Part shown: piece by piece, positions 48,281 to 59,120 of the stretch
How the letters are laid out: every line of letters starts with the position of its first letter
Numbering within the stretch: position 1 is the first letter of the stretch
Assembly (NCBI RefSeq): GCF_029223285.1
Contig: NZ_JARHUJ010000012.1
Span: 1 to 64,000 of the forward strand
DNA: 64,000 nucleotides
Direction of reading: 5' to 3'
DNA from: Paraflavitalea sp. CAU 1676
GTDB lineage: Bacteria; Bacteroidota; Bacteroidia; Chitinophagales; Chitinophagaceae
Translations under genes and position numbers: made by a program
The notes under the pieces: model-generated
Database searches by the model: none
Seen by the model: the letters and a program-made list of their open reading frames with translations, nothing else
What the model was told of the DNA's origin: nothing

Positions 48281-51200
48281 ATGACTCAGGATCAATTGTC
48301 GCGCCTGCTGGAAAATCTCACTGCCCGTTTGCAGCCTGCTGCTCCGCAACAGGAACAGCAATTGAAGCGGGCGCAGGAACTGATCGCTTCTTCCGTGATC
48401 AAAGGTGATATTCCGTATGCAGGCGAGCAGGTCGTCTTCAACAGCGCTCAACTGTTTGCGGCTGCCGATGTGACCAGGGCCTCGCTCGATCAGATCAAGG
48501 CCATCGCCACGGAGACCGTTGCTGCCAACAAAGATCCGGAGACCCGTTTCTTCATCCGCCAAACACCCGTACGCCAGTACGAGGTGGCGGGCAGCGTGCC
48601 CGACTGGGCTGTCGGCAGTAATCCGGTTGAATCGCTGGGACCTTTCCTCAACGAACAAGGCATCGAGATCTGGATCGATTTCTATAAGATCGTGAAGCTG
48701 GTGACGCTTTATATGAATGGTGCACCTGCTATACTTTTCAAGACCACGGTGCGTGGCATTCCCATCGGCATCAACACGCCGCCGCCCCTGCTGCAACAAT
48801 ACACGTTGAATGCGGGCAGCATCTGGATCAATGCGCGCCTGCTTTCGCCAGCAGCGCCCAATAATAAGTATGTCGGCCTTAAGATAAAGGACGGAACGCT
48901 CAATACCTCTATCGCCCCGGTGTTGCAGAATAACCAGGCTGTGTTGAATCCCGCCACCGTGCTGACCCTGGCGCTGGACATAGAACAGCCTACGGAAAAC
49001 TTTGCCGGTGACGGCAGTGGCTATGGCGATGATGCGCGAAAAGCAACTTACCAGTTGCCCACTTCTTTGCAACTCGTGTGGCAAAACAATAAGGTCGATA
49101 TAACGGGTATCGGTGAGGCGGGTTGTACGGTATTTGGCCAGGCACTTAGTTTTGCCAATACCAACCAGGCCGCTATTAGTCTCGAGTACAATGCACTCAT
49201 GAGTAAAGTGCTGATACCCTGGAATGCCTCGCCGGTTGATTTTGTGGTGACGGATTCGGTGAGTCCGGCCTTTAAATTGTCGGGACAGGCTACCATTACC
49301 CAGGCTTATTGGGGCTTGCCGGCGGCTGCACTCGACGTGGCCAATCCCGTACAGGCCGATAGCGGCGGTTCGGTGGTATTGGTAACCGGCAAAGGACTAA
49401 TCGCTACCTGGCCCGGATTGCAATACGAATCGTTGCGCCTGCAGGCGACCATCATCAACGCAGAGCCCGGCATGGTAGCGCTCCTCGACCTGGCGGCTCA
49501 GGGCCTTGGCGCCATGCAGTATTTTGATTTATGGAAGGAAGGCCAGCGGCCGGCTTCTACTGCTACCATTACTTATTTACAGGCCGCGCCTTTCATGCTG
49601 GCTATCTCTGCCGAGCAGAACCAGGAGATGATCACCATTTTTGCGGATGCGGATATTCAGGCCGACAGGCCACTGAAAGTAAACAGCAGTCCGTTTGCTA
49701 TTCGTTCACGCGCTTCGGCGCTGGCGTTGATGGCCAACAAGGATCGGCGGTTGATCATGTTGTTTGACGACAATTTATTGTGGGATAATAAGAAACCGGA
49801 AGATAAACAGCCCCTCTTCAAATGGGAGGCCATTGCTTTGGAGAATGCCTTGTTCACCGTATCGCCGGTGGCGGGTTTTATGCTGTTTGGTGAATTGAGC
49901 GATTCGTGGAAGAAGGTGACGCGGGCGAATTTCTTCCTCGTATTTGGTTTATCCACTTACCTGCCCACTTTGCCCGATCCCTATGTAGGCAATTTCGGGC
50001 TGTGGATACGCCGCTTTGCGAAGCAGCGGGTGGCCGGCAACGATGCGGGCCTCGCGGCCACCGGCTCGCTGCAGCAGTTGCAAACGATGCTCGTGTGTGC
50101 GATACGGTATGCTAAGGGAGCTGCGGGCGACGATGTGACGACCGATTTTTATTTTGGTACAGTGCCGCCTGCCTGGACCGAGCTGCCCGAAGAGCAACCC
50201 GCGCAACCTGTCCAGCCTGCACAACCCGGCAAGCCGAAGCCGGTTCAGCCCGTACGGGAGGGTGGTGGACTGACGCCCGGCGGCGGTGTTCATGTAATAC
50301 GCCGGCCCGTGCTCGTAGACCTGACATTGAAAGCCGTGAGACTGATGGAGGGCGCCCGCCTGGTGCAGTTCAAGAACGCGACGCGCATTAAGGTATCTGA
50401 CCTGCTCACGGAAAGGGTGGTCAAGCATGCGGTGAGCGATTTGTTCATCCCGAAAAAGAAGTTACCACAATTACCGGCTACCAAAACTGTACTGGATACG
50501 GTGGCCGAAGGAGAGGAGCTGAAACACAAACGACTCGCCTTGCGGCAAACAAATGACTATACGGGCTTTTGGGATAACGATATTATCGGCAGTGGCCTCG
50601 ATAACGATGTGTTCGCTTTGCTCGATGTAAGCAGCAATGCCCACCAGATGGGTATCAGTATCAATCCCACGATGTTGTTTGTGCAAACCGGCACGGTGGT
50701 ACCCGGCGTGGCGGGCGATCACGCCGTGAACATGGCTTCGACGCGGGTGGCTGCCAACAATGCTTTTCCTTTCGTGGTGGAAGGCATGCAGGTAAAGTCG
50801 CCCTCGCGGCTGGTAAAGAGTTTTACCTTGCCGCAGATCGCTTGGGAACCGGTCATCAACCTCACAGCGCCCGATAGGGAGCCGCCTGGAGGTCCCAAAC
50901 TGGCCATGGATCCAGAAGCAGGGTTTATTTATTTTGCCAATGATGGCGGCGCTACCCGGCTCTGGAACAACAGTACACAACTGGTGGCATTGGCGCCGAT
51001 ACCGGTGGTGGATGCACTGATCAAAGACTTCAAAGAGAACACGGCCAATTATACGGTGGCTTCCTTTACGATGCCCTTCGGGTTGAAAGCCATCAGCTAT
51101 GTTTCCAAAAACTTTGTAGAGCCGGTAAAACCCGATATCACCAACCTGCGGCCACTCTTCCGCAAGCAGGAGGATGGCAGTCATAAGCTGGAAGGCGGTA

Positions 51201-53908
51201 TACAAATACAGTTCACAGCCGGCCAGTTTGGCAAGCCGGTACCTACACCGGCCGAAAAGGATTCGCCGATGTTCCCTGGCTATACGATTCAACTCAACAA
51301 CCTGCTCGATATGGTGGGCATCGCCAAGGGAGAAAGTAACCTGGGGCACCGGGTTACGGAGATCTTCAACAACGAATTCCTGGTACAGCCGCTTGGCACA
51401 CCGGGCCTCGAAAAATCGCGTGGGGTACCCTTGACGCGCATGGACGTTACCGGGTATGGCGCTAATATCTTCAGCAAATGGCTGAGCCCTACGGCCGCGA
51501 TCGCGCAAACCAGTCAGGCGCGTTTTGATGTAATGCTGGGCCGTACGGCGCACGAAGTGATACAGGTGAAAAGCATTTTATACCCCTGGGGTATCCGGGT
51601 GGTGCGCACGATCACCGTGTTTCGCACCAGTACCGGTTATGTATACCGCGTAGACAGCGGCTGGAAAGCAGAGAGCGATGGCCTGTTCGATTTCTCGTAC
51701 CGGTACCTTTTGCTGGGCAAAGATCCGTTTGCTGATGATCTGAAGGATAGTGATTTCAAGACGGTCAAGGCGCCTTATGACATTCACCCGGGTATCGTAC
51801 GCGGTCTCTTCAATATCCGCAACATCAAAGATGCAGCTTCAGTGGCTGAATTCACCGATTCCAACTTTTATCCGGGCGGTCTGCCTTATGTGAATGGCGT
51901 GAAAGGGATGGAGATGATGGCCGATCCCGGTGGTATTACTGAGCCTGTGAAATGTGGCGCCGTGTATTTCGATGCCGATGTGGAGATTGAAAATGTAGTG
52001 CAGGGCCATACGAACAAACGGGTAGTTTCTAAAAAGATACTGGGTTATGTACAGGTGGCACCGGCTGGTGTTCCACTAACGCCGCTGCAATTGCGTGGCC
52101 TGCTCGACCTGCATGGCGGCAGCATCGGCGGTGACCTAGATTGCGTGATCGATATCGCACAGAGCAATCAGCAGATGAAGCTAACACGCTTTGATTGTAA
52201 TGTGTCTATCGATGGCAGCAAGCCGGTATTCGTATTGGCGGGCCGGGGACAGGTCATATTACCCAAAGATGGCAGCTGGACAATGGTGCAGCACGAAGTG
52301 GGCACCGGCGATGTGGCGCCCCTGGCGGCAGGTACTACGGTACCGCTTATCCGGAAGGGTTTATGGCAGAAAGAAACGGTCGTGAACCAAACGGATGTGG
52401 AGCAGCAGTTGCTGCGTATTGCGCATCCCAAAGAGATCATCCGCGAAGCAACTAGTGATACCATCAACTTCGGTTTTCTGCAAAGTACGGCAACGCAAAA
52501 GGCATTGTTCCTTACACCAGCTTTTGGCTTTATGAAAAAGCAATTGCTGAGTAAAACGCCGCCCATTTTTGCCGATGCCTACCGGTTGATGACGGGCAAT
52601 GGTATTTTCCCCAACGTAGGCAATGCCATCGATAATTTCGGGAAGGCCATGCCACTATTCCATGGCAAGCGGCCCGACGATTCTTTGTTCGATGCTTTCA
52701 ATACCAGTGCGTTGAAAGATGGGCTGACGAATGTACTGGAGCTGATGGAGATCACCCCGGTGAAAGCAGGAGAGGTGATCGTAGAGCAGGGAATGAGTTT
52801 GTTGCAGAAAGGCGCAGCAGGTGTACTGGACAAGGCCATGAAGTTTGATGTGCCGCCTTTTGAAATACCGCTGGTGGATACGGACGGTTTACGGATTTAC
52901 ATTGAGTATGCAGCGAAGAAGAAAGACAAGGACCCGAAGGGCGATGCCGCGCGGCTGAACTTCGATGTGACCTCGCTGGCCAATGACCTGGGCGATCAAT
53001 GGAAGAGCCGGCTCAACAACCTTGCGATGGTGGTAGACCTTGGTGATATGAAGCGCCTCATGATCATCAAAGGGAATTTCGATAGTAAGAAAGGTAAGGA
53101 AACCGGCTATGAAGGTGACCAGGGAGGTGATGGCTGGCCTACACCTGAAATAGAGTTCAGCGATGCCCTGAAACCGGTGATCGATATATTACAGGTGCTG
53201 GCGAAACTGAGCAGCGGCGACTATGCAGCTGCTATGAAGAAGGGATTGCAGATCGCGATGAGCAATAGCGGTGAGATCTGGGAATACAAGTTTGAAGCTG
53301 GTAAAGAAATACCGCTCGTACGGTTCCCGCCAACGGACGAATTGTACAATAGTGCGCAAACGCCGTTGAAGCTGGAGGCCTCGCTGGGTATAGGGGTTTA
53401 TTTCAATGCGGCGCTGAAGGTGACCACCGATCCCAAGCAATTGTTGCCAACTGCCGGCGCTTACATCAAGTTCCATGGAGGGCTGAAGGTAATGTGTATG
53501 TCGGTGGGCGTGGGGTCGATCTTCGCCATCGGTACGGTGGATGTGAAAGTCGCCTGCGATACGAAGGTGGGGCCGAGCCTGGCGCTCGACTTCGGCTTCG
53601 GCATCGAGATCGTAGTGAGTTTGCCGGTAGTGGGCAATGCGAGCGTGAGCTACCTGGTGGGGGTGCAGATGTATGCCGATAAGAACAAGGTGATCGTGGC
53701 GGCACTGATGCGCTTCCGCGGGCATGCCGAATTATTGGGTGGCCTGGTGGCGGTGACCATCACCATCGAAGCCAAAGGCATTATCGTACGGGAGAACGAG
53801 CAAACGGATTGCTCGGCCCAGGTAACCTTTGCCATCGATATCAGCATCTTCCTGATCATCGACATCAGTTTCTCGAAGACCTGGGGCGAAGACCGCCAGA
53901 TCGCTTAA
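48281..53908 (+). CDS. Giant protein of unknown function, first of a pair
   Basis: An 1875-residue protein with no signal peptide (MTQDQLSRLLENLTARLQ) and no domain that I recognise. It is beta-rich throughout. A proline/glutamine-rich linker (PAQPVQPAQPGKPKPVQPV, about 642-660) divides it into two parts. A compact aromatic-rich stretch at about 1046-1150 (MDVTGYGANIFSKWLSP, VKSILYPWGIRVVRTITVF) looks like a folded core. The last about 175 residues alternate small hydrophobic strands (GGLVAVTITIEAKGIIV, FAIDISIFLIIDISF), resembling a fibre or membrane-inserting module. It ends 29 bp before the second giant gene. Translated without interruption; the long antisense frames are shadows. Confidence 0.85.
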   Translation: MTQDQLSRLLENLTARLQPAAPQQEQQLKRAQELIASSVIKGDIPYAGEQVVFNSAQLFAAADVTRASLDQIKAIATETVAANKDPETRFFIRQTPVRQYEVAGSVPDWAVGSNPVESLGPFLNEQGIEIWIDFYKIVKLVTLYMNGAPAILFKTTVRGIPIGINTPPPLLQQYTLNAGSIWINARLLSPAAPNNKYVGLKIKDGTLNTSIAPVLQNNQAVLNPATVLTLALDIEQPTENFAGDGSGYGDDARKATYQLPTSLQLVWQNNKVDITGIGEAGCTVFGQALSFANTNQAAISLEYNALMSKVLIPWNASPVDFVVTDSVSPAFKLSGQATITQAYWGLPAAALDVANPVQADSGGSVVLVTGKGLIATWPGLQYESLRLQATIINAEPGMVALLDLAAQGLGAMQYFDLWKEGQRPASTATITYLQAAPFMLAISAEQNQEMITIFADADIQADRPLKVNSSPFAIRSRASALALMANKDRRLIMLFDDNLLWDNKKPEDKQPLFKWEAIALENALFTVSPVAGFMLFGELSDSWKKVTRANFFLVFGLSTYLPTLPDPYVGNFGLWIRRFAKQRVAGNDAGLAATGSLQQLQTMLVCAIRYAKGAAGDDVTTDFYFGTVPPAWTELPEEQPAQPVQPAQPGKPKPVQPVREGGGLTPGGGVHVIRRPVLVDLTLKAVRLMEGARLVQFKNATRIKVSDLLTERVVKHAVSDLFIPKKKLPQLPATKTVLDTVAEGEELKHKRLALRQTNDYTGFWDNDIIGSGLDNDVFALLDVSSNAHQMGISINPTMLFVQTGTVVPGVAGDHAVNMASTRVAANNAFPFVVEGMQVKSPSRLVKSFTLPQIAWEPVINLTAPDREPPGGPKLAMDPEAGFIYFANDGGATRLWNNSTQLVALAPIPVVDALIKDFKENTANYTVASFTMPFGLKAISYVSKNFVEPVKPDITNLRPLFRKQEDGSHKLEGGIQIQFTAGQFGKPVPTPAEKDSPMFPGYTIQLNNLLDMVGIAKGESNLGHRVTEIFNNEFLVQPLGTPGLEKSRGVPLTRMDVTGYGANIFSKWLSPTAAIAQTSQARFDVMLGRTAHEVIQVKSILYPWGIRVVRTITVFRTSTGYVYRVDSGWKAESDGLFDFSYRYLLLGKDPFADDLKDSDFKTVKAPYDIHPGIVRGLFNIRNIKDAASVAEFTDSNFYPGGLPYVNGVKGMEMMADPGGITEPVKCGAVYFDADVEIENVVQGHTNKRVVSKKILGYVQVAPAGVPLTPLQLRGLLDLHGGSIGGDLDCVIDIAQSNQQMKLTRFDCNVSIDGSKPVFVLAGRGQVILPKDGSWTMVQHEVGTGDVAPLAAGTTVPLIRKGLWQKETVVNQTDVEQQLLRIAHPKEIIREATSDTINFGFLQSTATQKALFLTPAFGFMKKQLLSKTPPIFADAYRLMTGNGIFPNVGNAIDNFGKAMPLFHGKRPDDSLFDAFNTSALKDGLTNVLELMEITPVKAGEVIVEQGMSLLQKGAAGVLDKAMKFDVPPFEIPLVDTDGLRIYIEYAAKKKDKDPKGDAARLNFDVTSLANDLGDQWKSRLNNLAMVVDLGDMKRLMIIKGNFDSKKGKETGYEGDQGGDGWPTPEIEFSDALKPVIDILQVLAKLSSGDYAAAMKKGLQIAMSNSGEIWEYKFEAGKEIPLVRFPPTDELYNSAQTPLKLEASLGIGVYFNAALKVTTDPKQLLPTAGAYIKFHGGLKVMCMSVGVGSIFAIGTVDVKVACDTKVGPSLALDFGFGIEIVVSLPVVGNASVSYLVGVQMYADKNKVIVAALMRFRGHAELLGGLVAVTITIEAKGIIVRENEQTDCSAQVTFAIDISIFLIIDISFSKTWGEDRQIA

Positions 53909-53937
53909 CCGAGTTCCTTCAACTTAAACATTTCGAC

Positions 53938-56900
53938 ATGGAAGCTAATAGAAAATATACAACGATGGTGTTTCCGCAGGGATTCGACGGTACCCATCTC
54001 CTCCTGCATATTGTATTGATACCCCGCAACCAGGATCCCTTTAAGATATGGCCCACAACTGTGACAGACCATGAAGAATCAACACCTTTTGCCGACCTGG
54101 TGCCGCAATTTGAAGTGGCGATCCACAAGGGGCTGGAAGAATGGCCCATCGGCAATGTGGGCACCATTGTGAAGCTGCCGGTGACGGTTGATGAAGCCGT
54201 CAATAAGAAAGCGGCACTGGATGGCATTGCTGTGCAACTGGGCGCTAAGATCAATATGGATGGATCAACCGCGGCAACGACCGATAAGGCGCCGGATACG
54301 CCGTTGCCCGAAAACCAAAGTGTACAGAAATACCTGCCGGAAACCTACCGCACGGCGTTCAATTTTACCAATCCCAGGCATCCTAATGCCAAACTGGATG
54401 ATAGCTATCATTGCGCCATCAAGAAGGATACCCCTAAAAAGAAAGACTGGAAGAACGACGATAACCTGAGCTGGGGCCAGGTGTTTGCCCATATTCTACG
54501 CCAGCCGATGCTGGCGCGTGGCTGTGGAATGATCTACACCGCTTCGGTTGACCTGACGCCCCATGCTGAGCTGTTGGAGAAGGGTGGCTTTGTGCATGTG
54601 AACATGGTTGATACGCAGACAGCGGCCATTCAAAAGGCGTTGTTGGAAGATGCGCAGGGACCATTTGTGAAACGATATGCTGCCCGCATTCCTGCGCTGA
54701 CCCTTGGTACGGGCAGGCCGGTGTTTGCACCCATGCTATTCCCGGTATTGCATAAGAAGACTGCCGATCCTGCTGATCCGGTACCGCCCCCTGCGGAATG
54801 GGATAAGATATTTGCTGAACTGAATGAATACAACGATGGTTATGCGAAGATCGTGCATGCCGGCCAGCAGGTGAGCAGCAATCTGCTGAGTGAGCGGCAG
54901 GATGGTCCGGGCCCGCAAAGCGATACCGGCATCCGCCTGGCCTGGGATGATGAGCAGATCATGATCTGGTATCTACGGCAACTAAGTGCCAACCCGATGG
55001 ATGCCGGCAAGCGGCTGGATGTGCCCATGGGTGTTTATGGTTACCGCATCGACGTACGCAAAGATGAAGTGGGCAGTGAATGGAAAAGTCTTAACACGGT
55101 ACAAAGCGATCAGCCGCTGATGATCGGCGATGCCAACCTGGGCACTACGCCTGCGGGTGGTCTTGAATTGCCTTTCCAGGTATTCCCTTCACAGCTCGAC
55201 AATAATACCAATGCACCATACTGGCTGCCCATGTATTTTACGAACTGGATTGGCCGGAGCGTGGTGTTGAAAGATATAGATGCCATTCGCATCAATCGCC
55301 ATGCCGATGGGCAAAAGAGTCCGCTCGATAACACAGCGAAAGCGGTCGATACGGCTTCTCCCTATACCGAGATACCCTCTGGTGTAGACCTGCGGTATGG
55401 ACAAGGTTATCAGTTCCAGGTGCGGATGATGGACATCAGTGGCGGTGGACCGGTGATCGGCGCCCCGATAGTTAACAATGCGCCATCACCATCGGCCAAA
55501 CATACTTTTAAACGCTACATAGCTCCCGACCTTTGCCGGGTGGAGCAACCGGAAAAGCTGCGTACGGGTCTCTCTTCCTATTTCAACAAAGAGGATATGG
55601 ATGAGAACAGTGTATCGATACCTAACCCTGCATTACAGATCAGGCGGCCATTGCTGAACTATCCGGCGGTGCTATTTACCGGTAAGTACCAGGCCATCGG
55701 TCAAAACCCGGTAGACCTGCTGATCGCAGCTACGGGCGATGCAACCCTCAATAAGATACCGGGTATTGCCGATCCGGATGTAACGCATGTGGAGATCAAA
55801 GTAGAGATTGAGACGCTCAAGCTGGACAACTTGTTGAGCGAAAGTGGCAGGGAGAATTATATCACGTTATATACAACGACGCGTGCTTTTCCCGCGGGCT
55901 TCGACGATGAGTTGTCGCTGCCGGTCGTGTTTCACGATGTGCCGGTGTTGCTGGCTGGCAACGTGGATGATCCATTTAACCGGCCAGACCTGAACAAGGC
56001 GGCCATCGATGGCATGACAGACATTCCATTGCCTACGGCGCGCCGCATCCGGCTTACGCTGCGGGCCGTGTGTGCTGAACAGGCTGGTTATTTCGGATTC
56101 AGTAACCCGGCCAATAAGGATATGGATACGCGCTATGGCAAAACGACGCAATGCTGGTTCCATCAGCCCTCTACCGCTGAGGAGACATTGCTGTTGCCGG
56201 CGGTAAATGTGCCGCCGCTGCAAGGCATTTACCTGCAACCGGATCCTCCAATGTTGAACAGCGGCGTACTCTCTACTTTTTTCCTCGCCAGGGAGGCGCA
56301 AAATAATATGCCGGATATTGTACAGCGCTTTGCACAGAAGCTGGGATTGCGGAACAATGGCCTGACGCTGATGGGGCGCAAGGGCGAACGCGTGGTGTTT
56401 GGTTGCAGCAACCGCATCCGCCATCATTTGTCGCCCGATCATGGCAGCATCACTTTCTCTTCGAAAGGAGACCTCTGCAACCATTGGTTGGGTTGTATCG
56501 TGTATCGGCTGAACCGTGACTGGACCTGGAATGCGTTAGAAGACGTGAGCTTCCAGGTAAAGCGCTGGCGGAAGTTTGAACGCGATAAAGACGAAGAGAC
56601 GGAAGTGATCAAGGTATTGGGCGATATTGAAATAAAACGATCAGCTTCTTTCGAGTGTTTGCAGGAAGATGAATTTGGCGAAGTAAACCGTGAATACACG
56701 ACGCTCATATTCATCGATGCGATAGAGCCGAAATCGGTATTGGAAAAAACAGGCGGCGGCTTGCGATTCCCCGATGAGCTGAATGCTGAATACGAATTGA
56801 CACCGCGCTTTCGTCCGAATCATGGTGCGCCGGCTCCTTTTAAAACAGATTTATTACACCTGCCCACTACGATCATTCCCGCGCAGGTGCCGGAGATCGC

Positions 56901-58317
56901 GAGCGTCGGTATTGCATTTTCTCCCTACCTGGCCAATGAACGATACAGTGCTACTGAACCCAGGCAGCGCTACCTGTGGGTGGAACTGAAAGAACCCGTA
57001 AAAGACCCGCATGATGCGTTGTTCTGCCGCGTGCTGGCGTATGCACCCGACCAATTGCTGAGCCATAGCCGGGGCGGCATTATGACCGAAGTGCCGGAAG
57101 AGCCGGCCTTGCCGATCGATCCGGAATACATTCGCGCGATAACGCCGGGACAAACAGATGATATGGCCGGTATGGGAGCTATGCAGCCGATGGAGCGGGC
57201 GAGTGGCAAAGAAGGTCTTCATTACTTGTTGCCACTACCGCCAGGTTTGCATCCGGAAAGTCCCGAATTGTTTGGCTTCTTCACCTACGAGTTCAGAATT
57301 GGCCATGCACATGGGCATATGCTGAAGCGCGATCCCAAGGGTGATCTATGGAGTACAGCGCAGGGAAGATTCGGACGTCCGCTGCGGGTAACGGGTATGC
57401 AGCATCCGGCGCCGAACTTACTGTGTAATGTAGATAGAGATAAAGACCGGGTGTATGTTACGGCGACGTATGCCAAAGCTGTATGGCAGGGGCGCAATGT
57501 AACCTGCGATCCACCGCGTACACAATTGCATGGGCTGCTGTATGCACAGGTGCGTCAGGCGGATGGCAATGGGTATCGCAATATCCTGCTCGATGAGCGC
57601 CTGATGGTGTTGGATAAGCCTATCAAAAGAGCACCTGGTTTGTTCCTGCAGGAATTCCATGCCGCTCAGTTGCATACGGCGCGCTGGACGGCCGACCAGG
57701 TAGCGGTGAGCGAGAAGGCGAATGTGTTGATCAGTCACTTGTCGTTGCTGGAGGAAAAAGAACTGACTGTATTGCGCCTTAACCCGGCGGTGAACAGGAA
57801 ACTGGCGGCTGTAGTAGTGGCGCGCAGGCTGGGTAAGATCGAGCGGCTGGATGCGCAGACAGCTGCCCAGTTGGTGAGTGCTTATGAGAAAGTGAGTTGG
57901 AAAGATAGCCTGGCACCGGCGGTTGCGGTGAATGCCGGTGACAAGTTTACCCAGGCGAGTCTGGTGGCGGGCGCCAAGCTGGCCATCTTTAAAGATGCGC
58001 CGAAAACAGCGACTATAGCCTGGACAAACAAAGAGATATCGCTGATGCTATATCAATTGGGTTTGCCACAGGATGCTTCCCTGAGCGTGCTGGTGGTGGA
58101 AGTGTTTGGTAATATCACCAGTGTATTTGAACAACTGGGCATGCCGATGGATCAATTGGAAGTATTGATGCACCAGCGTCCGGATGTGGTGAACGCTATT
58201 AAACAGCGACAACAAATGCAACAGCAAGCATTATCGAGTCAGTTGGGCAACTATCGAATTTTGCGCACCTCACCGCTGACGGAAGTGCCGTTTGTGTGTT
58301 GCACGACCTGCGGGTAA
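53938..58317 (+). CDS. Giant protein of unknown function, second of a pair
   Basis: A 1459-residue protein starting at ATG 53938 (MEANRKYTTMVFPQGFDG); the frame extends upstream only over the end of the first giant gene. No signal peptide, membrane segment or known motif is seen. It is rich in aromatic and polar beta-strand patterns (RIRLTLRAVCAEQAGYFGF, LCNHWLGCIVYRLNRDWTW). The C-terminal about 220 residues turn helical (AAQLVSAYEKVSW, IKQRQQMQQQALSSQ). The protein ends in a cysteine-rich tail, VPFVCCTTCG. Co-directional with the first giant gene and followed by a strong terminator, so the two form one operon. Confidence 0.85.
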   Translation: MEANRKYTTMVFPQGFDGTHLLLHIVLIPRNQDPFKIWPTTVTDHEESTPFADLVPQFEVAIHKGLEEWPIGNVGTIVKLPVTVDEAVNKKAALDGIAVQLGAKINMDGSTAATTDKAPDTPLPENQSVQKYLPETYRTAFNFTNPRHPNAKLDDSYHCAIKKDTPKKKDWKNDDNLSWGQVFAHILRQPMLARGCGMIYTASVDLTPHAELLEKGGFVHVNMVDTQTAAIQKALLEDAQGPFVKRYAARIPALTLGTGRPVFAPMLFPVLHKKTADPADPVPPPAEWDKIFAELNEYNDGYAKIVHAGQQVSSNLLSERQDGPGPQSDTGIRLAWDDEQIMIWYLRQLSANPMDAGKRLDVPMGVYGYRIDVRKDEVGSEWKSLNTVQSDQPLMIGDANLGTTPAGGLELPFQVFPSQLDNNTNAPYWLPMYFTNWIGRSVVLKDIDAIRINRHADGQKSPLDNTAKAVDTASPYTEIPSGVDLRYGQGYQFQVRMMDISGGGPVIGAPIVNNAPSPSAKHTFKRYIAPDLCRVEQPEKLRTGLSSYFNKEDMDENSVSIPNPALQIRRPLLNYPAVLFTGKYQAIGQNPVDLLIAATGDATLNKIPGIADPDVTHVEIKVEIETLKLDNLLSESGRENYITLYTTTRAFPAGFDDELSLPVVFHDVPVLLAGNVDDPFNRPDLNKAAIDGMTDIPLPTARRIRLTLRAVCAEQAGYFGFSNPANKDMDTRYGKTTQCWFHQPSTAEETLLLPAVNVPPLQGIYLQPDPPMLNSGVLSTFFLAREAQNNMPDIVQRFAQKLGLRNNGLTLMGRKGERVVFGCSNRIRHHLSPDHGSITFSSKGDLCNHWLGCIVYRLNRDWTWNALEDVSFQVKRWRKFERDKDEETEVIKVLGDIEIKRSASFECLQEDEFGEVNREYTTLIFIDAIEPKSVLEKTGGGLRFPDELNAEYELTPRFRPNHGAPAPFKTDLLHLPTTIIPAQVPEIASVGIAFSPYLANERYSATEPRQRYLWVELKEPVKDPHDALFCRVLAYAPDQLLSHSRGGIMTEVPEEPALPIDPEYIRAITPGQTDDMAGMGAMQPMERASGKEGLHYLLPLPPGLHPESPELFGFFTYEFRIGHAHGHMLKRDPKGDLWSTAQGRFGRPLRVTGMQHPAPNLLCNVDRDKDRVYVTATYAKAVWQGRNVTCDPPRTQLHGLLYAQVRQADGNGYRNILLDERLMVLDKPIKRAPGLFLQEFHAAQLHTARWTADQVAVSEKANVLISHLSLLEEKELTVLRLNPAVNRKLAAVVVARRLGKIERLDAQTAAQLVSAYEKVSWKDSLAPAVAVNAGDKFTQASLVAGAKLAIFKDAPKTATIAWTNKEISLMLYQLGLPQDASLSVLVVEVFGNITSVFEQLGMPMDQLEVLMHQRPDVVNAIKQRQQMQQQALSSQLGNYRILRTSPLTEVPFVCCTTCG

Positions 58318-58352: not shown

Positions 58353-58384
58353 AGAAAGCAGGTACAGTCCTGCTTTCTTTTTTT
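58353..58384 (+). terminator. Strong terminator closing the giant-gene operon
   Basis: AGAAAGCAGG pairs with CCTGCTTTCT (10 bp, loop TACAGT) and runs into seven T residues. It lies 36 bp after the stop at 58317. Confidence 0.95.
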
Positions 58385-58415: not shown

Positions 58416-59120
58416 CTACTGCTCCAACTGGATGGCTTTCGGAAACAGGATATTGTTCTCCAGGTGAATGTGCAGGTGCAGGTCTTCCTCAAATTCTTTC
58501 AACAACGCGAATGTAACCTTATACGTATTGCAGGCGTCTGCCGGCGGAGTGTAGTTGTTGGTGAGGGCTGCAATGCGCCGGAAACGTTCGCCTTCGTTGT
58601 CGTGTTCCTGCTTCATCATCTCAATGGGGTTCTGTACCGTGCCAAAGGGGGCAGGTACGTGCCTGCCGCTGCCGGCCAGCATTTTACGGATATAGGGAAA
58701 CAGTACCAATTCTTCCTTTTGCATATGGGCTGTTAGTTCTCCGGCACTCTCGTTGAACAACTTTTCCACTTCTTTCAGTTCCGGATGCCGGTCGCCATGT
58801 ACTCTCGACACTTTGTGCAGGAAAGGGGTGATTTCCTTTATTCGGGTGGTTACATAGCGGTGGTGTTTTTTCTCGATATAATCGGCCAGCAGGTCGAGGG
58901 GCCAGGTATTGAAACCGGGGTCTGTTGTGCTGGGCTGATGCGTAGTTTGCTGCAATTCGCTGATAACACCTTCTATGTCCAGTTGTTTTTTAAGGCAGGC
59001 ATCTGCGATGCTGCGATTGCCGTTGCAGCAAAAGTCAATACCGTGCTTTTTGAAAACAGGGGCTGTGCGGTAGTTGTTGGCAACGAGTTCGCCAATAATG
59101 GATTGTTCTGTTATATTCAT
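58416..59120 (-). CDS. ric: Iron-sulfur cluster repair di-iron protein (Ric/YtfE/ScdA)
   Basis: A 234-residue protein. The N-terminal ScdA_N domain carries HGIDFCCNGNRSIADAC, with the CC pair at C31/C32. The hemerythrin-like domain (about 75-225) supplies the expected His and Glu ligands: EKKHHRYV, HMQKEELVLFPYI, MKQEHDNEGERF and LHLHIHLENNILFP. Ric proteins restore Fe-S clusters damaged by nitric oxide or oxidants. A perfect 9-bp inverted repeat overlaps the start codon, suggesting direct control of this gene. Confidence 0.95.
   Translation of the reverse strand: MNITEQSIIGELVANNYRTAPVFKKHGIDFCCNGNRSIADACLKKQLDIEGVISELQQTTHQPSTTDPGFNTWPLDLLADYIEKKHHRYVTTRIKEITPFLHKVSRVHGDRHPELKEVEKLFNESAGELTAHMQKEELVLFPYIRKMLAGSGRHVPAPFGTVQNPIEMMKQEHDNEGERFRRIAALTNNYTPPADACNTYKVTFALLKEFEEDLHLHIHLENNILFPKAIQLEQ

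What the first reader, a model, noticed from the sequence alone, without database searches (positions are those of the whole stretch)
48281..58317. Pair of giant orphan proteins in one operon
Two adjacent genes of 1875 and 1459 codons, 29 bp apart, share one strong terminator and fill 10 kb without any domain I can recognise. Neither has a signal peptide or T9SS-type C-terminus. The first ends in about 175 residues of small alternating strands; the second ends in a Cys-rich tail (CCTTCG). Equal codon quality throughout argues for selection. They could be subunits of a large cytoplasmic assembly, a toxin pair or components delivered by a contractile or lytic route; all of this is inference.
Basis: partly seen in the sequence, partly recalled or inferred. 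Interest (0 to 1): 0.85.

Follow-up and report, generated by a model that had tools for sequence, protein, structure and literature searches.

The report
Obligate pair of giant all-beta proteins
Two very large bacterial proteins of unknown function turn out to be a tightly linked gene pair found in scattered species of many bacterial groups and unlike any protein family we could match, most likely two halves of one large protein complex.

Summary
The genes are real: A (48281-53908, 1875 codons) and B (53938-58317, 1459 codons), 29 bp apart, one terminator, dN/dS 0.08 and 0.06. Neither matches Pfam, NCBIfam, PHROGs, PADLOC or the PDB credibly; fold searches found no good match. They are not orphans: a genome scan gave 148 B relatives, 80 kept. 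Of 85 loci examined, 82 have A just upstream of B; in the other 3 the contig begins inside B. A and B distances co-vary (r = 0.96). The module is patchy (A in 18 of 294 family genomes), occurs across phyla and has no fixed neighbours. A deeper branch, A'/B', is related by profile and paired in 18 of 18 loci; 11 of 18 A', but 0 of 19 B' frames, pass a strict Tat-signal test. A ends in eight long amphipathic beta-strands, a pattern shared with A'. Best reading: A and B form one giant, mostly beta complex built in the cytoplasm, with a lipid or other hydrophobic ligand at A's end; sister lineages export it folded. Pairing is shown; complex, ligand and place of action are inferred. A toxin pair or injected cargo is not supported.

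The parts
48281..53908 (+). Gene A, 1875 aa: N-terminal part about residues 1-640, variable Pro-rich linker about 641-769, conserved C-terminal part 770-1875
   Evidence: ORF; conservation over 68 relatives; dN/dS by part
50588..53905 (+). A residues 770-1875: predicted mostly beta, best conserved part of A (mean pLDDT 81.9, pTM 0.69)
53366..53848 (+). A residues 1696-1856: eight predicted amphipathic beta-strands of 15-19 residues; its second half overlaps the stretch homologous to the C-terminus of A'
53909..53937 (.). 29-bp A-B spacer
   Evidence: median A-B gap in 82 loci 26 bp with mechanical starts
53938..58317 (+). Gene B, 1459 aa; conserved core about 1-1225, variable segment about 1226-1350, conserved tail about 1351-1459
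54907..55518 (+). B about residues 324-527: the stretch shared with the distant B' family (ends approximate, read from the alignment)
58294..58314 (+). B C-terminal VCCTTCG, CC conserved
58353..58378 (+). Intrinsic terminator after B

Best explanation
A and B are the two subunits of one giant, mostly beta-structured complex (1875 + 1459 residues), encoded by a self-contained two-gene module that moves between bacteria. They are probably made from one transcript and assemble in the cytoplasm. B is a chain of beta-sandwich-like domains that serves as scaffold; the C-terminal end of A is a long amphipathic beta-sheet or barrel whose hydrophobic face holds a lipid or other hydrophobic ligand, or touches a membrane. 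In the window's branch neither protein shows an export signal, so the complex acts inside the cell; in a sister branch the A partner often has a Tat signal, so the complex, or A alone, is exported already folded. Shown: the pair, its conservation and co-variation, its scattered spread, the relation to A'/B', the Tat-type N-termini of A' and the amphipathic strands. Inferred: co-transcription, physical complex, ligand, place of action, function.
For: Pairing: A just upstream of B on the same strand (gap at most 764 bp) in 82 of 85 loci, the other 3 contigs starting inside B; in the family survey A and B share 17 genomes, one is A-only (A runs off its contig), two are B-only (one starts at a contig edge, one is a 57-residue match at E 4e-5). 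Co-variation of A and B distances r = 0.963 over 68 loci, best of 500 permutations 0.15. Conserved exact C-termini. Spread: the quick B tree needs 8 label changes for Bacteroidota, 3 Acidobacteriota, 2 Pseudomonadota, 2 Cyanobacteriota. Distant branch: A vs A' E 1.2e-6 (probability 90.8), B vs B' E 2e-11 (97.3), crossed A vs B' 0.11 and B vs A' 0.43; a B' profile has a match of 44-166 profile positions in 13 of 14 genomes known to hold B, in frames of 1329-1498 residues. Tat, strict test: 11 of 18 A', 0 of 19 B' frames, 0 of 68 A, 0 of 82 B, 5 of 601 neighbour frames. Amphipathic strands: mean beta-moment 1.35 at A 1696-1857 against 0.61 +/- 0.10 in shuffles, 1.25 against 0.61 in A'. Models.
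Against: No experiment and no co-fold: the complex is inferred from genetics. B was modelled in a homologue 46% identical to the window's B; A 1-769 was not modelled. The A-A' link covers about 130 residues and B-B' about 205, so function need not be shared. Many of the 85 loci are close kin. Neighbours give no pathway. The Sec-signal test was crude, and the three A' Tat N-termini score only 1.35-1.63 by the same measure.
Confidence: 0.48

Rival explanations
1. The pair is an exported or released structural layer or filament, with B as a string of Ig-like domains and A as a barrel-like base.
For: B hits in Foldseek are tandem Ig/FnIII chains and an S-layer protein, all weak; A hits include SlpA, LptD and porins, all weak; 11 of 18 A' have a Tat-type N-terminus.
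Against: In the window's branch 0 of 68 A and 0 of 82 B pass the Tat test and only 1 of 68 A has a strongly hydrophobic N-terminus; the A C-terminal stretch has W+Y 0.026 against 0.084 in the window's own TonB-receptor barrel and holds a conserved Cys, unlike an outer-membrane barrel; an A' with the same C-terminus occurs in Streptomyces.
Confidence: 0.15
2. A and B are two separate proteins that only share regulation, not one complex.
For: No direct interaction evidence.
Against: Pairing across phyla, co-varying distances, Tat signal on A' but not on B'.
Confidence: 0.15
3. The pair is a toxin or predation complex released by lysis or another route.
For: Giant size, patchy spread, plasmid copies; in two Tat-type loci (L233, L235) a gene with a protease domain overlaps the end of B' if mechanical starts are right.
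Against: No toxin or catalytic domain in A or B; conserved C-termini; a same-strand gene within 100 bp downstream in only 9 of 74 loci of the window's branch.
Confidence: 0.12
4. The pair is an anti-phage system.
For: Self-contained, patchy, mobile; of 10 annotated plasmid regions opened, one pair is one small gene away from dpdE-J (L206) and one lies within about 10 kb of a type I-D CRISPR locus (L197).
Against: PADLOC finds nothing in A or B; among 130 neighbour proteins no PADLOC family of the 25 shown (of 124) is hit by more than 2 members, though no background control was run.
Confidence: 0.1

Closest known systems
A'/B' pairs of Rhizobiaceae, Burkholderiales, the family of a Phenylobacterium genome, Streptomyces and one other Bacteroidota-phylum genome (where annotated: hypothetical proteins)
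   Same: Giant gene pair, A before B; homologous C-terminus of A and homologous central stretch of B
   Different: Elsewhere no profile match was found; A' reaches 3056 aa; strict Tat-type N-terminus on 11 of 18 A'
Tat hitchhiker complexes such as E. coli PaoABC (only the search listing with abstract opening was seen, PMC4273604)
   Same: One subunit carries the Tat signal, partners have none
   Different: No redox or cofactor domain found here; far larger subunits; the comparison concerns A'/B', not the window pair
Large amphipathic-beta lipid carriers (apolipoprotein B, LptD and kin)
   Same: Long amphipathic strands; both appear among weak Foldseek hits
   Different: No Pfam or sequence link; a vitellogenin-shell Pfam hit in one A' has E 0.19 and is not significant; fold scores too low for membership
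Tc toxins, polymorphic toxins, contractile-injection cargo
   Same: Size and operon pairing only
   Different: No family hit for A or B, conserved C-termini, no recurrent injection genes nearby

Membership tests
Tc toxin complex (TcA/TcB-TcC) | TcA, TcB/SpvB or RHS-repeat domains (features recalled) | tested here: not met
   0 Pfam and NCBIfam families at E<=1 for A and B; none among the 2 families found in 27 A members or the 25 shown of 34 in 32 B-set members
Polymorphic toxin | Conserved body with swapped C-terminal toxin domain plus immunity gene (recalled) | tested here: not met
   C-termini of A and B are well conserved; no conserved downstream gene outside genus-level synteny
Contractile injection or phage-derived component | Phage-type domains or tail/sheath genes nearby | tested here: not met
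   PHROGs 0; no B relative in viral contigs or phages and no B' in phages; no recurrent neighbours (only 25 of 202 Pfam families shown)
T9SS cargo | Sec signal and T9SS C-terminal domain (recalled) | tested here: not met
   No NCBIfam hit, no strongly hydrophobic N-terminus in window A or B (crude measure)
Outer-membrane beta-barrel | Signal peptide, aromatic-rich lipid face (recalled) | tested here: not met
   No signal; hydrophobic face 1% Y, no W; W+Y 0.026 against 0.084 in one comparison protein
Amphipathic-beta lipid carrier or transfer protein | Continuous hydrophobic groove or cavity of beta-strands | tested here: inconclusive
   Strand pattern present; geometry not testable without coordinates; fold matches weak
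Amphipathic-beta lipid carrier or transfer protein | Bound or transferred lipid | not testable with these tools
   Needs purified protein
Known anti-phage systems | Match to a described defence protein | tested here: not met
   PADLOC 0 at E<=1 for A and B
A'/B' giant pair superfamily (named here) | A upstream of B, homologous A C-terminus and B centre | tested here: met
   E 1.2e-6 and 2e-11, crossed controls 0.11 and 0.43; 18 of 18 distant loci paired
A'/B' giant pair superfamily (named here) | Tat signal on A (present in part of the superfamily only) | tested here: not met
   0 of 68 A in the window's branch against 11 of 18 A'

The most novel reading that the evidence does not exclude
An undescribed class of two-subunit giant beta-protein machine, scattered by gene transfer over many phyla, fully assembled in the cytoplasm around a lipid-handling amphipathic sheet; sister lineages export the pre-folded complex by Tat (A' up to 3056 and B' up to 2002 residues in one locus), which would probably make it one of the largest folded cargoes of that pathway.
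Probability: 0.25. Interest if true: 0.85.

Novelty: categorically new. Interest (0 to 1): 0.62.

Why it matters
Ten kilobases of strongly selected coding sequence, in a tightly linked pair carried by scattered members of eight phyla by record title (some are metagenome bins), match no family, fold or system that we could search. If the pair forms one complex it is a new large cellular machine; the Tat-bearing relatives give a handle on the size limits of folded-protein export, and the amphipathic sheet makes a lipid role testable.

Tried and rejected
Domain libraries on A and B: nothing. Pfam on 27 A members: two isolated weak hits (E 0.049 and 0.099). Pfam on a 32-row B set (it also held both L107 proteins and the L200 fragment): 34 families, 25 shown, each in one member; most are coiled-coil hits of the L107 A'; an FG-GAP hit (E 2.6e-9) lies in one member that was not identified or followed up and is not in the window's B. 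PDB sequence and profile searches: best E 0.02 (a chromosomal protein against the B' profile), not credible. Foldseek PDB for both models and viral for A only: generic hits. Common origin of A and B: probability 0.1. Defence or pathway from neighbours: of 177 eligible proteins (two nearest on each side, 90-900 aa, 49 chosen loci of the 85) the first 130, from 35 loci, fitted one scan; no Pfam family in more than 4 of 130 among the 25 shown of 202, no PADLOC family in more than 2 among the 25 shown of 124; no random-gene control was run. Empty-site test in the genus: the GSDH gene lies beside the pair in window and G002 and is also in G003, which lacks the pair; the TonB-receptor gene was found on the other side in G002 but not within the 20 kb taken from G003, so no empty junction was shown: inconclusive. 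Metagenome contigs: cap 0. On recount the anti-phage odds went from 0.08 to 0.10 (2 of 10 annotated plasmid regions, not of about 100 loci) and the best reading from 0.50 to 0.48.
Full report
Observation. The two frames are as described: A 48281-53908, B 53938-58317, 29 bp between them, a 10-pair stem and T run at 58353-58378. Against the same-genus copy the proteins are 86% and 84% identical with dN/dS 0.077 (A) and 0.056 (B); the C-terminal part of A is the most constrained (0.049) and the Pro-rich linker the least (0.137); dS of 1.2-2.1 is near saturation, so these are rough. The pair is richer in G+C than the window (0.541 and 0.532 against 0.498), and on average 3.2 points richer than its surroundings in the loci compared. 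Neither protein matches Pfam, NCBIfam, PHROGs or PADLOC at E<=1, nor any solved structure by sequence or profile at a credible level.

Relatives. A is in 2 of 5 genomes of the genus, the own one included. In 294 genomes of the family A is in 18 and B in 19; 17 are shared. The A-only genome has A running off its contig, one B-only genome has B at a contig edge, and the other is a 57-residue match at E 4e-5. In 395 genomes drawn from the phylum B is in 11, the own one included; one of them (G663) is a very weak match that proved to be the distant branch. A pattern scan of bacterial and archaeal genomes gave 201 candidate stretches, 148 with a B relative, 80 kept. B has no relative in viral contigs or phages; A was not searched there. 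Plasmids gave 4 records for B, three with the pair (A in two frames in L199) and one with a B fragment.

Pairing. In the 80 loci plus three plasmid loci, the second copy of this genome and the window, A lies just upstream of B on the same strand in 82 of 85; the other three contigs begin inside B. The gap is 26 bp at the median and 764 bp at most, with mechanical starts. Many loci are close kin (19 rows of Cyclobacteriaceae alone). Identity distances of A and B correlate at 0.963 over 68 loci, with 0.15 the best of 500 permutations. No other gene recurs widely: of the 15 neighbour clusters printed, those above 3 loci are made of Algoriphagus and near kin, with single genes of Gelidibacter and Ferruginibacter; a first, partly overlapping set had two 5-locus clusters at varying distances. 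A same-strand gene within 100 bp follows in 9 of 74 and precedes in 4 of 68. The B tree (quick method, some long branches) interleaves phyla: Bacteroidota 59 rows with 8 changes, Acidobacteriota 5 with 3, Chlorobiota 4 with 1, Pseudomonadota 3 with 2, Cyanobacteriota 2 with 2, single rows of three more groups, 6 of 82 rows ungrouped; some rows are metagenome bins, so transfer is likely but single events are not proven. A second diverged pair sits in the same genome, G000 C12 about 825-834 kb (L096; 27% and 35% identity).

Distant branch. The weak G663 hit led to a pair (L107) whose A' is cut by the contig start. Its B' and A' found 14 and 13 plasmid records (the Borrelia hit of A', 86 residues in a repetitive protein, was dropped); seven of the 14 B' records were opened (L201 carries no annotation). 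Profile searches, centre genomes aside, gave 1 further genome of 150 in one family, 4 of 349 in a phylum and 5 of 119 in another family; all ten were taken. In these 18 loci A' lies upstream of B' on the same strand in 18 of 18, with A' in two frames in L204 and B' in two frames in L206, the first of which has no profile hit. Profiles of A and A' match over about 130 residues at the C-terminus (E 1.2e-6, probability 90.8), B and B' over about 205 central residues (E 2e-11, 97.3); the crossed comparisons give 0.11 and 0.43. A B' profile matches over 44-166 positions in 13 of 14 genomes known to hold B, E 7e-14 to 8e-4, in frames of 1329-1498 residues; the fourteenth gave none.

Export. A strict twin-arginine test (RRx[FLVMIW], uncharged hydrophobic stretch, AxA) is met by 11 of 18 A', 0 of 19 B' frames, 0 of 68 A, 0 of 82 B and 5 of 601 neighbour frames (the neighbour set holds mechanical ORFs of 60 aa or more). 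L107 A' is cut and only the second frame of L204 A' was tested, so 16 were fully testable; the first L204 frame shows no such signal. In some rows the motif lies far from the mechanical start (position 110 in L241), so the true start is probably later. L238/L239 and L240/L241 are near copies, so the 11 are not independent. A looser RR pattern flags 12 of 18 A' and 2 of 18 B' frames with a profile hit. In Sinorhizobium a tatA gene follows B' by 49 bp; in L233 and L235 a gene overlapping the end of B' has a trypsin or Aspzincin_M35 domain. These facts concern A'/B'; nothing of the kind was seen in the window's branch.

Structure. AlphaFold2: A 770-1875 with 66 sequences, mean pLDDT 81.9, pTM 0.69; B core of L167 (46% identical to window B) with 77 sequences, 82.5 and 0.65. 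Both are mostly beta. Foldseek against the PDB gives only generic partners: tandem Ig/FnIII chains, arrestins, complement and an S-layer protein for B; LptD, ushers, porins and apolipoprotein B for A; TM by query length at most 0.15 and 0.13 in the rows shown. The viral library, searched for A only, adds nothing. The last part of A is striking: eight strands of 15-19 residues at 1696-1856, one face Kyte-Doolittle +2.2 to +3.0, the other -0.7 to -1.6 in seven of the eight and 0.0 in one. The mean two-fold moment there is 1.35 against 0.61 +/- 0.10 in 2000 shuffles (largest 0.97), and 1.25 against 0.61 (largest 1.03) in the corresponding stretch of A'. The hydrophobic face is V, A, L, I, F with 1% Y and no W; W+Y over the stretch is 0.026 against 0.084 in the window's own TonB-receptor barrel, the only comparison made. 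So it does not look like an outer-membrane barrel, and an A' with this C-terminus occurs in Streptomyces.

Interpretation. Pairing, co-variation, conserved exact C-termini and a Tat signal on one partner only are what a two-subunit complex assembled before export would leave (inference). The amphipathic sheet suggests a hydrophobic ligand or membrane contact (weaker inference). Toxin and injection readings lack positive evidence; an anti-phage role has only two suggestive neighbourhoods among 10 annotated plasmid regions.

Noticed in passing
G000 C12 about 825400-834500 (L096 5393-14505): Second, strongly diverged A-B pair in the same genome (27% and 35% identity to the window's).
   Followed up: partly
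L206 (Agrobacterium vitis CG957 plasmid), 3337-31916: A' and a B' in two frames lie one small gene away from dpdE-J genes (7-deazaguanine DNA modification, function recalled).
   Followed up: no
L205 (Sinorhizobium meliloti LMB1 plasmid pC), 18424-18591: A tatA gene follows B' by 49 bp on a conjugative plasmid; A' there has a Tat-type N-terminus.
   Followed up: partly
L233 39-1190 and L235 1042-1737: Genes overlapping the end of B' (mechanical starts) with trypsin or Aspzincin_M35 protease domains; a possible third member in Tat-type loci.
   Followed up: partly
window 58416-59120 (-): Protein resembling RIC/ScdA iron-sulfur repair proteins (recalled, not tested) next to the pair; found in 1 of 5 genomes of the genus, the own one.
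   Followed up: partly
L197 12170-14344 and L199 25095-27215: A catalase-peroxidase or catalase gene within 2 kb of the pair on two unrelated plasmids.
   Followed up: no
L091 6017-11455: B of 1812 aa, about 350 residues longer than the window's B.
   Followed up: no
P0004 745-753 and the ends of the other four A': These five A' end in or near a W..(Y/H/R)C.AFA motif, while A ends in RQIA and B in a CC..C tail: three conserved C-termini of unknown use.
   Followed up: no
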